From JAUXIQ01 sp030620925 [NCBI: Nitrospinota bacterium] (GTDB taxonomy: Bacteria > JAUXIQ01), in the NCBI GenBank assembly GCA_030620925.1, contig JAUXIQ010000060.1:1-8782 (forward strand): a stretch of 8,782 bases of DNA. The letters run 5' to 3'. Shown piece after piece: positions 1-8,782 of this stretch. The first letter of the stretch is position 1. Each line of letters starts with the position of its first letter. The notes under the pieces are model-generated. The model did not search any database. It was not told where the DNA came from and saw only the letters and a list, made by a program, of their open reading frames with translations. Made by a program: the position numbers and the translations under genes.

Positions 1-66
1 ACCACCAATGGCGACTAAACCTTAACTCGAAATTCAGAAGCAGAATTCGAAATCATCATATGTGAC
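1..66 (+). pseudogene. Upstream part of a receiver domain, interrupted by an in-frame TAA
   Basis: This stretch is in the same frame as the ORF that begins at 67. It reads TTNGD, then TAA at 16-18, then TLTRNSEAEFEIIICD running directly into MKMPG. The spacing fits a CheY-like receiver: the glycine of the usual 'NGEEAL' helix start, then the hydrophobic strand ending in the phosphoacceptor Asp (codon 64-66), then the x-x-M-P-G loop. The TAA sits where Glu (GAA) is common in the family, so one G-to-T change would explain it. No ATG, GTG or TTG in this frame lies between the stop and codon 67. The gene therefore appears broken, or the read contains an error. The true 5' part lies beyond the left edge, and a hybrid histidine kinase or a free response regulator is equally possible. 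Confidence 0.6.
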
Positions 67-507
67 ATGAAAATGCCCGGCATGAGCGGTATAGAATTAT
101 ACGAGCGTTTAAGCGAAGAATATCCTCAAGCGCTTAGTAAAATAATAGTGGCTACTGGAGACACCATCTCTAAGGAAACCAAGAAGTTTCTGGAAGAAAC
201 AGATGTTGCACACATAATGAAACCTGTAAATATTGATGAATTGGTAAACGTGATGTCGGCCATGGTCTCCAGCTTCTCGCTGTCCAACGGCAGCGGTAAA
301 ACCGCCACCAAGAGGCGCACCGGCGAAACACACTTTGGCCAGCGCCCGGTAGGGGCGCACCAGCAGAACGTTCTCCAGAAAACTAAGGCGGCTATGAAAG
401 GTGATGGCGACGACGGTGGCAGCGGCGATGACTCGAATAAGGAAACGCCTGAAAAACTTATACCTTTCAAGGAAGACGAAGACGGAAAGACACTGACCGA
501 TTTTTAA
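67..507 (+). CDS. Response-regulator receiver domain fragment with long charged C-terminal tail
   Basis: As called from the first ATG this is 146 residues. Residues 1-66 are the second half of a CheY-like receiver domain: the MPGMSG loop after the phosphoacceptor, T30 in IIVATGD as the conserved Thr/Ser of strand 4, and K52 followed by P53 as the conserved Lys-Pro of strand 5. The phosphoacceptor Asp itself is the codon just before this ATG, so a protein starting here would lack the first half of the domain and could not be phosphorylated normally. The phrase ATGDTISKETKKFLEET resembles receivers at the C-terminus of hybrid histidine kinases. Residues about 67-146 form no recognised domain. 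They are rich in Gly, Asp, Lys and Glu (for example GDGDDGGSGDD at 112-122) and end in an acidic stretch. No good Shine-Dalgarno precedes 67. The gene is most likely a 3' remnant of a longer reading frame that includes 1-66. Confidence 0.55.
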   Translation: MKMPGMSGIELYERLSEEYPQALSKIIVATGDTISKETKKFLEETDVAHIMKPVNIDELVNVMSAMVSSFSLSNGSGKTATKRRTGETHFGQRPVGAHQQNVLQKTKAAMKGDGDDGGSGDDSNKETPEKLIPFKEDEDGKTLTDF

Positions 508-526
508 ACCGGTTTTATCGCGAACG

Positions 527-5762: not shown

Positions 5763-7265
5763 CTATCTTAATTCCCTTCGTAAAATTTTCCCCACGCTGC
5801 TGGTGGGAAGACCGTCCATGAACTCCACCACCCGCGGGGCTTTGTAAGGGGCTATCCTTTCCCGGCAGAAAGAGATTATATCTTCGGCCGACGGCGCTTC
5901 CGCTCCCTCTTTCAGGACGACGCAGGCCTTTACAACCTCCCCCCGCTCCTCGTCGGGTACACCCACCGCAGCGGCCATGGCTATGTCGGGATGTGCGCAA
6001 AGTGCGTTCTCCACCTCGGCGGGGTAGACGTTATAGCCGCCGGTGATGATCATGTCTTTTTTACGGTCCACGATATAGATGTAGCCGTCTTCGTCAACCC
6101 TCCCCAGGTCGCCGGTGTGAAACCAGCCCCCCCTCAGCGCTTCAGCGTTCGCTTCAGGAAGACCCCGGTATCCTTTCATCACTGCCGGGCTCTTTATCAC
6201 TATTTCCCCCATCTCTTCGGGAGGCAGTTCGTTGACCGAATCATCCACCACCTTCACGCTGGTATGTGCGCAGGGGATGCCCACCGACCCCGGCTTAACC
6301 CGGCCGTAAACAGGGTTGGAGGCAGCCAGCCCCGTCTCGGTGAGACCGTAGGCCTCTAGTATGCGTGTGTTGAAGGCGGCCTCGAAATCTTCCATCACCT
6401 TGAGAGGCAGCGGGGCGCCTGCCGACACGCAGCGGTCGAGCGAAGCGGTATCGTAGGCGGCGGCGTTGGGGAGGTTCACCATGCGAGCGAACATGGTGGG
6501 CACCGCCTCGAACACCGTGGCACGATGCTCCTGAATCCCCTGGAGCATCTTTTCGGCGTCGAAAGCGGGCAGCACCACCAGCGTGGCGCCCGCCAGGAAT
6601 GAGCCGTTCATCACCACGTTCCCTCCGAAGACGTGGAACAGAGGCAGCGCGGTGATAACACAATCGTGTCTGTTGATTATATGGACCATGGCTGACATTT
6701 CGGCGTTTATGGTCATATTGCCGTGGGTCAACTGGGCCCCTTTCGGCTTTCCAGTCGTGCCGGAGGTATAAGGGAAGAAGAGGAAATCATCGTCCTGGCA
6801 GGGGACAAGGGGTGACGTCTGTACACTTTCCTCCAGCAGGCGGTGGAAAGAGGCAGCTCCTGCTTCATCCCCTTCGCCGGTGGTAATCACCGTTTCGAGG
6901 GAAGGGAGCTCTTTCCTGATCTCGGATATGATGGGTAAACATTCGGGTATAGCTATAACCGCCTTGGACCCCGCGTCCCCCATGATGTATCTTATCTCGT
7001 CAGCGCGGTACATAACGTTCAGGGGATTGATAACCGCACCGATCTTGGCCGCACCGTGGTAGGCTACGACGCATTCAATACTATTGGGAAGCAAGAGGGT
7101 TACCCGGTCCCCCTTCTCCACTCCCAATCTTTTGAGTGCATTGCCCGCCCTGTTAACCATGTCGTTAAGTTCGGTGTAGCTCAGGCGAGCCTCCTCCACA
7201 ACAAGCGCCGTCTTCTCGCCGAAGTTTTCGGCGCAAGCCTCCAGCATTTCACCCAGGCTGCCCAT
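5763..7265 (-). CDS. AMP-forming acyl-CoA synthetase (fatty/carboxylic acid-CoA ligase)
   Basis: Adenylate-forming enzyme of the ANL superfamily, 500 residues, full length for a FadD/LcfB-like ligase. It converts a carboxylic acid, ATP and CoA to acyl-CoA, AMP and pyrophosphate in the cytoplasm. Visible motifs in order: P-loop YTSGTTGKPKG 166-176, LPLFHVFG 207-214, SAGAPLP 281-287, AYGLTET 305-311, GWFHTGD 380-386, hinge DRKKDMIITGGYNVYPAEVE 400-419, and the C-terminal catalytic Lys 493 in SSVGKILRREL. All key residues are present, so it should be active. The start is ATG 7265 with GGGGG 8 nt upstream. It is the first gene of the minus-strand unit, followed by livG and livF, which suggests that it activates the acid brought in by the importer. 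Substrate chain length or aromaticity cannot be read from the sequence. Confidence 0.9.
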   Translation of the reverse strand: MGSLGEMLEACAENFGEKTALVVEEARLSYTELNDMVNRAGNALKRLGVEKGDRVTLLLPNSIECVVAYHGAAKIGAVINPLNVMYRADEIRYIMGDAGSKAVIAIPECLPIISEIRKELPSLETVITTGEGDEAGAASFHRLLEESVQTSPLVPCQDDDFLFFPYTSGTTGKPKGAQLTHGNMTINAEMSAMVHIINRHDCVITALPLFHVFGGNVVMNGSFLAGATLVVLPAFDAEKMLQGIQEHRATVFEAVPTMFARMVNLPNAAAYDTASLDRCVSAGAPLPLKVMEDFEAAFNTRILEAYGLTETGLAASNPVYGRVKPGSVGIPCAHTSVKVVDDSVNELPPEEMGEIVIKSPAVMKGYRGLPEANAEALRGGWFHTGDLGRVDEDGYIYIVDRKKDMIITGGYNVYPAEVENALCAHPDIAMAAAVGVPDEERGEVVKACVVLKEGAEAPSAEDIISFCRERIAPYKAPRVVEFMDGLPTSSVGKILRRELR

Positions 7266-7716: not shown

Positions 7717-7730
7717 AGCCTGTTTAAGTT

Positions 7731-7743: not shown

Positions 7744-8640
7744 TTGCTTGATAATACAGCCAAAAAAGCATTGGCAGACGGCAAGTCGATCATAGGTACC
7801 ATGACTATGGAGTTCAACTCCCCGGAGATTGGAAGAGTGCTGGCTGCCGCCGGATTCGACTTCGTCATCATCGATATGGAACACTCCTCATACAGCCTGG
7901 AAACGGTGACTGACCTTATACGAGCGGCGAAGTCCAAGGGACTGAACTGCGTGGTGCGTGTTGCCGACCCCCTGTACCACCTCATGGCCCGCACATGCGA
8001 CGCCGGAGCCCAGGGGCTCATGGTACCCAGAGTGGAAACCAAGGAACAGATAGAGAGCGTGATAAACGCCATAAAGTATCCACCGCAGGGCAAGAGAGGC
8101 TACGGGATAAGGCCCATCCATACCGACTACGAGAACATGGCCCTACCCGATCTGCTCAAACAGATGAACGAAGAGAGCATGATCATCGTCCAGGTAGAGA
8201 CCGGAAAAGCGCTTGATAATATAGACGACCTGCTGGCCGTTGGTAACATCGATGTAGCATTGGTGGGCCCCTATGATCTGTCTATAAACCTGGGGGTGCC
8301 CGGGGATTTCGAGCATCGCTCAATGATCGAGGCCATCGAGTGGGTCATCCATGCGTGCAAGCAGTCAAACGTGGCCCCCGGTATCCACCTGGGGGACGTG
8401 CAATCCCTATTAAACTGGCATGAAAAGGGCATGCGCTGTCTGACTTGCTCTTCCGACCTTGGGATGTTATTTGCAACGGCCGCAGCCAATGTGAAAAAGC
8501 TCAAGGAAGGCATCTCTCCCGGGCCTAAACCCAAAGCTGCAACCGAAGAAAAAGCGCCCAAAGCTGCAGCCGAGGAGAAAACACCCAAAGCCGCAGCCGA
8601 GGAGAAAGCACCCAAAGCCGCAGCCAAAGAAAAAGCTTAA
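7744..8640 (+). CDS. HpcH/HpaI-family aldolase with a tandem-repeat C-terminal tail
   Basis: Class II (divalent-metal) pyruvate/2-oxoacid aldolase of the HpcH/HpaI / citrate-lyase family, related to 4-hydroxy-2-oxoheptanedioate and 2-dehydro-3-deoxyglucarate aldolases; 298 residues from TTG 7744. The catalytic set seen in HpaI is present: D44 and H47 in IDMEHSS, R72 in VVRVAD, metal-binding E152 in VQVETGKA, and D178 in GPYDLS. SSDLGMLF at 236-243 is the family's final barrel motif. The core ends near residue 257, the usual family length. A tail of about 40 residues follows, made of four 9-residue repeats of the form PKAAAEEKA (residues 263-298), not part of the normal family. The exact substrate is unknown. 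The gene diverges from the ligase, and a metabolic link to the importer is possible but unproven. Confidence 0.85.
   Translation: MLDNTAKKALADGKSIIGTMTMEFNSPEIGRVLAAAGFDFVIIDMEHSSYSLETVTDLIRAAKSKGLNCVVRVADPLYHLMARTCDAGAQGLMVPRVETKEQIESVINAIKYPPQGKRGYGIRPIHTDYENMALPDLLKQMNEESMIIVQVETGKALDNIDDLLAVGNIDVALVGPYDLSINLGVPGDFEHRSMIEAIEWVIHACKQSNVAPGIHLGDVQSLLNWHEKGMRCLTCSSDLGMLFATAAANVKKLKEGISPGPKPKAATEEKAPKAAAEEKTPKAAAEEKAPKAAAKEKA
8530..8637 (+). repeat. Four tandem 27-bp repeats encoding PKAAAEEKA-type units
   Basis: Four head-to-tail 27-bp units at 8530-8556, 8557-8583, 8584-8610 and 8611-8637 encode PKAATEEKA, PKAAAEEKT, PKAAAEEKA and PKAAAKEKA. Units 2 and 3 differ at only two bases, so they probably arose by recent duplication. 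Unit 1 is the most diverged in codon use. The array lies in frame at the end of the aldolase gene, directly before its stop. Confidence 0.9.
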
Positions 8641-8678
8641 GGGACTCCTGAGAATCGCAGGGATATCTTTACGTCCCG

Positions 8679-8697
8679 GAGATCAGTATCTGATCTC
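8679..8697 (+). terminator. Strong hairpin after the aldolase gene, possible terminator
   Basis: GAGATCAG (8679-8686) and CTGATCTC (8690-8697) form a perfect 8-bp stem with a 3-nt loop, 38 bp past the stop. An outer GGGAC (8641-8645) / GTCCC (8673-8677) pair precedes it. No T-run follows immediately; the nearest is at 8729-8735. It may protect the 3' end or assist termination rather than act as a classic intrinsic terminator. Confidence 0.4.
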
Positions 8698-8739
8698 AAC
8701 AACCATTTTCCCCATCTCTTAAAATAAGTTTTTTTATCG

Positions 8740-8767
8740 CCTGAAAAGGTGGTAAGGGAGTTTCAGG
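8740..8767. repeat. Inverted repeat near the right edge
   Basis: CCTGAAA (8740-8746) and TTTCAGG (8761-8767) are exact reverse complements with a 14-nt loop, followed by AAAAAGTTTTT. It may belong to a terminator or to the control region of a gene beyond the window. No start of a following gene is visible. Confidence 0.35.
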
Positions 8768-8782
8768 AAAAAGTTTTTGGGG

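What the first reader, a model, noticed from the sequence alone, without database searches (positions are those of the whole stretch)
8518..8640. Aldolase carries a four-unit PKAAAEEKA repeat tail
The HpcH/HpaI barrel is complete by about residue 257, and the chain then continues with four 9-residue repeats rich in Lys, Ala, Glu and Pro, resembling histone-H1-like or ribosomal-protein tails. Such tails are not part of the known aldolase fold. The near-identical 27-bp units suggest recent expansion. The tail might drive assembly, nucleic-acid or membrane contact, or tethering to another enzyme.
Basis: partly seen in the sequence, partly recalled or inferred. Interest (0 to 1): 0.6.

Follow-up and report, generated by a model that had tools for sequence, protein, structure and literature searches.

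The report
Aldolase with a growing repeat tail
An otherwise ordinary-looking bacterial aldolase carries a floppy tail of four nearly identical nine-residue repeats that the relatives examined lack and whose copy number seems to vary between strains, most likely a recent and largely passive addition rather than a new device.

Summary
Window 7744-8640 (+) encodes a complete class II HpcH/HpaI-type aldolase (core residues 1-258, active-site residues conserved, confident model). It is followed by a 40-residue tail holding four 27-bp/9-aa units (8530-8637; TRF score 146, best of 200 shuffles 57). The closest homologue found (54% identity) stops at core residue 258, and no homologue whose end was inspected carries such a tail, the genome's own paralogue included. 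In the assembly the repeat was found elsewhere only on contig C356. C356 overlaps the window's right end and has one more unit between units 3 and 4, a 12-bp 3'-UTR indel and a SNP. Copy number therefore probably varies between co-assembled strains (4 versus at least 4, most simply 5), which supports recent expansion. The tail is a nearly balanced polyampholyte (10 Lys, 7 Glu; net +3), predicted disordered, which argues against a histone-H1-like nucleic-acid tail. Unit differences lean to silent changes (5 to 3, P 0.026-0.065), so composition may be weakly constrained. Best reading: a lineage-specific extension of an already flexible C-terminus, grown by tandem duplication, neutral or passively useful. 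A specific tethering or assembly role is possible but untested. Modest interest.

The parts
7744..8640 (+). Class II HpcH/HpaI-family aldolase gene, TTG start, 298 aa (an upstream in-frame TTG at 7729 is possible), stop TAA 8638-8640
   Evidence: PF03328 E 3.6e-33, 115.2 bits against cut-off 25; start position by alignment
7744..8517 (+). Catalytic core, residues 1-258; E46, H47, R72, E152, D178 conserved
   Evidence: invariant in an alignment of 41 sequences; AF2 mean pLDDT 90.3, last helix 238-256; best PDB fold match 3qz6
8518..8529 (+). Junction PGPK between the last helix region and the first repeat unit
8530..8556 (+). Repeat unit 1, PKAATEEKA
8557..8583 (+). Repeat unit 2, PKAAAEEKT
8584..8610 (+). 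Repeat unit 3, PKAAAEEKA (contig C356 has one further unit after this one)
8611..8637 (+). Repeat unit 4, PKAAAKEKA, directly before the stop codon
8679..8697 (+). Perfect 8-bp hairpin in the 3' untranslated region (possible mRNA end; no T-run directly after it)
   Evidence: fold of 8638-8782, z -2.62, 3 of 200 shuffles fold as well; not among the sites of the terminator scan

Best explanation
The gene encodes a normal, probably hexameric, metal-dependent class II aldolase of the HpcH/HpaI family. Its C-terminus, just after the last barrel helix, has gained a lineage-specific disordered tail. Shown: the tail is built of in-frame 27-bp tandem units, was not seen on any homologue whose end was inspected, and occurs with a different unit arrangement on a second contig of the same assembly. 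Inferred: the two contigs are alleles of one locus in two strains; the units arose by tandem duplication; in the hexamer each subunit contributes one hydrophilic, nearly charge-balanced tail (about 24 units per hexamer). Because the C-terminus of a studied family member is already flexible (residues 254-266 of AbHpaI have no electron density), growth there is tolerated. The tail most likely acts passively, as a solubility or spacer brush, or has no function, with weak selection on its composition and little on its length.
For: Core complete and catalytic residues present (AbHpaI Glu46, His47, Arg72, Glu151, Asp177 in PMC8560999, passages). Closest homologue, 54% identical, ends at core residue 258 (L165). 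Among homologues inspected none has such a tail: 0 of 80, 0 of 31, 0 of 35 including L165; 3 of these 146 rows are cut before a stop codon. Contig C356 has an extra unit plus a 3'-UTR indel and a SNP. The repeat was found nowhere else in the assembly. Tail predicted coil, 10-residue block pLDDT 67 falling to 48. Charge 10 K / 7 E, net +3. Unit differences: 5 silent versus 3 amino-acid changes (counted by site from the codons), expected silent fraction 0.25-0.31, P 0.026-0.065.
Against: The excess of silent changes, weak as it is (eight changes), hints that the peptide is maintained and not wholly neutral. No homologue above 54% identity was found, so the tail's age and conservation among close relatives are unknown. 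Low AF2 confidence in the tail is partly because no homologue covers it.
Confidence: 0.66

Rival explanations
1. The tail is a functional multivalent binding or tethering element: six repeated tails per hexamer bind a partner enzyme or scaffold, or drive clustering, and unit number tunes this.
For: Regular 9-residue units, silent-biased differences between units, multivalency expected from a hexamer (hexamer known for AbHpaI).
Against: No obvious partner is encoded beside it: the gene stands alone between a divergent AMP-binding ligase gene and, if C356 is its continuation, a convergent HD-domain response regulator gene. No similar tail was found on any other protein of this assembly at E up to 10. 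Not seen in the homologues inspected.
Confidence: 0.2
2. The tail binds nucleic acid, as histone-H1-like or MDP1-like Lys/Ala/Pro tails do.
For: Lys 25%, Ala 35%, Pro 15% (counts), near the 30-33% Lys, 35-42% Ala, 8-10% Pro given for MDP1 (PMC5974015, passages; I take these figures to be for its C-terminal disordered region).
Against: 17.5% Glu makes it a balanced polyampholyte: net +3 over 40 residues, on a core of about -9. The whole protein stays acidic, calculated pI 5.7.
Confidence: 0.04
3. The copy-number difference is not strain variation: C356 is a second genomic locus with its own tailed gene, or an assembly artefact of the repeat.
For: C356 begins inside the tail, so its aldolase core is not seen; the genome is a 445-contig assembly, 89.5% complete.
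Against: Only one copy of the core was found in the assembly besides a 31% paralogue without a tail. C356 matches the window right up to the window's last base, with a 12-base indel and one substitution beyond the stop codon, which repeat collapse alone would not make.
Confidence: 0.1

Closest known systems
AbHpaI and E. coli HpcH/HpaI class II pyruvate aldolases; nearest solved structure 3qz6 (Desulfitobacterium hafniense HpcH/HpaI aldolase)
   Same: Fold (3qz6: rmsd 1.3, 35% identity), metal and catalytic residues, last helix then a flexible end (AbHpaI residues 254-266 not seen in density).
   Different: The solved relatives in the listing are 251-287 residues long apart from macrophomate synthase (339), and none matched the tail. 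The window protein scores far below the HpaI equivalog cut-off (146.8 against 368.8 bits), so its substrate is unknown.
Mycobacterial MDP1/HupB C-terminal disordered region (PAKK repeats; PMC5974015, passages)
   Same: Short Lys/Ala/Pro repeats at a bacterial C-terminus, disordered.
   Different: That tail follows a DNA-binding domain, and the paper reports loss of genome compaction when it is deleted; here the tail is near charge-balanced and follows an enzyme.
Small protein tandem repeats at protein ends (census PMC7230257, passages)
   Same: Shorter repeats prefer both protein ends and overlap disorder; the authors favour origin by duplication. That a 9-residue unit falls in their 'small' class was not checked.
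   Different: Nothing fundamental; this is an instance on an aldolase, with a probable within-sample copy-number difference.

Membership tests
HpcH/HpaI aldolase / citrate lyase family (PF03328) | Profile match above the gathering score | tested here: met
   115.2 bits against cut-off 25
HpcH/HpaI aldolase / citrate lyase family (PF03328) | Barrel fold with metal ligands Glu and Asp plus Glu-His and Arg of the class II site | tested here: met
   E152, D178, E46, H47, R72 invariant in 41 sequences; the AbHpaI residues are named in PMC8560999 (passages); fold matches
HpaI equivalog (TIGR02311, 4-hydroxy-2-oxoheptanedioate aldolase) | Score above the curated equivalog cut-off | tested here: not met
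   146.8 against 368.8 bits
HpcH/HpaI aldolase / citrate lyase family (PF03328) | Hexamer (dimer of trimers), described for E. coli HpaI and AbHpaI; not a proven trait of the whole family | not testable with these tools
   stated for AbHpaI and EcHpaI; only the monomer was modelled here
Histone-H1-like / MDP1-like nucleic-acid-binding tail | Strong net positive charge, Lys-rich with few acids (the 'few acids' is recalled) | tested here: not met
   10 Lys, 7 Glu, net charge per residue 0.075
Histone-H1-like / MDP1-like nucleic-acid-binding tail | Binds DNA | not testable with these tools
   needs a binding assay
Short disordered protein tandem repeat | Tandem units, disorder, terminal position | tested here: met
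   tandem units and position; disorder only as predicted (low-confidence coil)

The most novel reading that the evidence does not exclude
A hexameric aldolase uses a rapidly length-changing, charge-balanced repeat brush, whose unit count is tuned within a population, to set its solubility, clustering or docking to a partner.
Probability: 0.1. Interest if true: 0.45.

Novelty: new variant of a known kind. Interest (0 to 1): 0.22.

Why it matters
It is a tidy example of how a disordered tail is born on a metabolic enzyme: a clear junction, few enough units to trace the duplications, tail-less relatives, and two lengths apparently coexisting in one sample. If the tail had a selected role, it would offer a simple with/without test of what polyampholyte tails do on an oligomeric enzyme.

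Tried and rejected
Search of the tail alone: no Pfam family at E up to 10 (8500-8637). No PDB chain at E up to 10. No plasmid match at E up to 1 (the low-complexity filter is on, so this is weak). In 385 other genomes nothing at E 0.001 or better. At E up to 10 there were 36 rows in 27 other genomes, best E 0.04. For the 28 rows that came with loci I looked at the most tail-like open frame of each (where the match held stop codons this need not be the match itself): scattered low-complexity or arbitrary frames, and no aldolase tail recognised by eye.

A first scan of named genomes with the single protein found no relative; the alignment scan returned the best 80 of 559. Homologues of the core on plasmids are common (751 records, all below 60% identity), but their C-termini were not inspected. 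An RNA-level role of the repeat was considered and dropped: fold z-score -0.35, no Rfam match in the window. The antisense 118-aa ORF at 8271-8627 mirrors the coding repeat and is not needed to explain anything. Homologues with C-terminal extensions of 20 residues or more do occur (L091, 33 aa; L095, 22 aa; 2 of 80), but they are neither repetitive nor K/A/E/P-rich.

Literature, listings only unless stated: HpcH/HpaI with C-terminal features (6 papers held all terms; 10 shown of 1,072 holding two terms) showed no title or abstract start reporting such a tail; this is no proof that none is in print. Searches found no papers. One search (15 shown of 12,930) gave MDP1; (10 shown of 73) gave the tandem-repeat census. 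Passages of three papers were read.

Rows not inspected: 7 matches came without loci (open frames 255-287 aa). Seven weaker homologues (L008, L009, L011-L015) were only translated, show no such tail, and are not in the counts. One of the 80 loci (L062) and two of the 35 (L173, L178) run off the stored sequence before a stop. Some rows may be the same genome held in two collections. The fold alignment used 40 of the 80 loci.

Full report
What is there. The finding's coordinates hold. The last gene of the window runs from TTG 7744 (alternative TTG 7729) to TAA 8638-8640 on the + strand. The nearest homologues begin at the position matching 7744 and a GAGGAGG stretch precedes it. The product has 298 residues. 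Residues 1-258 match Pfam PF03328 (115.2 bits, cut-off 25) and, well below its equivalog cut-off, TIGR02311 HpaI (146.8 against 368.8 bits). The family is therefore secure and the substrate is not known.

The core is intact. In an alignment of 41 sequences E46, H47, R72, E152 and D178 are invariant. The structural paper on AbHpaI names Glu46, His47, Arg72, Glu151 and Asp177 in the site or as metal ligands (PMC8560999, passages read). The AlphaFold2 model (41-sequence alignment) has mean pLDDT 90.3, with the last helix at 238-256. The tail is coil, with ten-residue block means falling from 67 to 48. Best solved match: 3qz6, rmsd 1.3, 35% identity.

The repeat. Units 1-4 occupy 8530-8637: PKAATEEKA, PKAAAEEKT, PKAAAEEKA, PKAAAKEKA, after a PGPK junction. 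TRF gives period 27, 4.0 copies, score 146. Of 200 dinucleotide shuffles of the window, 136 gave any array and the best scored 57. The C-terminal 40 residues are 92.5% K/A/E/P; the highest of 412 mechanical open-frame ends in 82 fetched loci was 45%.

Copy number differs between two contigs. A DNA search of the window's assembly (445 contigs, 89.5% complete) with 8400-8700 found one other place, C356:1-177. C356 starts inside the tail and matches the window up to its last base, 8782. It reads (partial)AAAEEKT, PKAAAEEKA, PKAAAEEKA, PKAAAKEKA, stop: one unit more between window units 3 and 4. It also has a 12-base insertion in the 3' untranslated region and one substitution beyond it. C356 then continues into a convergent response regulator gene with an HD domain. 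No second copy of the aldolase core was found in the assembly apart from a 31% paralogue on C360 that ends without a tail. The simplest reading is two strain alleles of one locus, one with 4 units and one with at least 4 (5 if the unseen start is the same). This is an inference from an assembly, not from reads.

Relatives. No other genome was offered for the window genome's phylum. The closest homologue found, 54% identical, is on G495 (L165). It stops at the equivalent of core residue 258, and its stop codon overlaps the start of the next open frame, so in that relative a tail would run into the next gene. Tails of this kind were seen in 0 of 80 named loci (two have unrelated extensions of 22 and 33 residues, one is cut by its end), 0 of 31 genome loci (longest extension 14) and 0 of 35 more (longest 14; two cut by the locus end). 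These sets may share a few genomes. The tail alone found nothing at E 0.001 or better in 385 other genomes, and only scattered low-complexity matches at E up to 10.

What it may do. The tail has 10 Lys and 7 Glu, fraction charged 0.425, net charge per residue 0.075, on a core of calculated charge about -8.6. That is a balanced polyampholyte, unlike a strongly basic nucleic-acid tail. For MDP1, whose C-terminus is a Lys/Ala/Pro-rich disordered region, 30-33% Lys, 35-42% Ala and 8-10% Pro are given (PMC5974015, passages; acid content not given in those passages). Between the four units I count five silent and three amino-acid-changing differences by site (codons). The expected silent fraction is 0.25-0.31, giving P 0.026 to 0.065 depending on transition bias. 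The pairwise tally was 13 and 13, the second number counting every difference in a codon whose amino acid changes. So there is a hint of selection on composition, from only eight changes.

In AbHpaI the last helix docks on the neighbouring trimer and residues 254-266 are not visible. The tail here would extend the same free end. I therefore favour a tolerated, passive extension grown by tandem duplication, at 0.66, over a specific binding role at 0.2 and nucleic-acid binding at 0.04. The census of protein tandem repeats (PMC7230257, passages) reports that shorter repeats lie towards both protein ends and overlap disorder, so the phenomenon is known. I saw no report of this instance in the listings, which is a narrow search.

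Surroundings. The aldolase gene stands alone, between a divergent AMP-binding ligase gene (5763-7265, minus) and, on C356, the convergent HD-domain regulator gene. A branched-chain amino-acid-type transporter gene set lies further left (three of its genes were searched). The 3' untranslated region folds better than most shuffles (z -2.62).

Noticed in passing
window 67-507 and L156 (contig C14) 1-126: The response-regulator gene at the window's left end has a diverged second copy (76% DNA identity over window 364-510) at the very start of contig C14. The two differ in a Gly/Asp-rich linker but keep the ending KLIPFKED...LTDF; again a contig begins inside a low-complexity gene end.
   Followed up: partly
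window 4-66: The receiver domain of that response regulator, searched from the ATG at 67, matches only positions 50-109 of 111; upstream its frame meets a TAA at 16-18 close to the contig end. The upstream piece was not searched.
   Followed up: no
window 8638-8782 and L018 104-319: The region between the aldolase gene and the convergent HD-domain regulator gene is structured (hairpin 8679-8697, long weak stem further on, z -2.62), and the C356 allele carries a 12-base insertion a few bases after the stop codon.
   Followed up: partly
L165 388-3760: In the closest homologue's genome the aldolase sits in a tight run with a uroporphyrinogen-decarboxylase-like protein, a D-2-hydroxyacid-dehydrogenase-like protein and a shikimate-dehydrogenase-like protein (open frames; names by eye, not searched), unlike the lone gene in the window.
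   Followed up: partly
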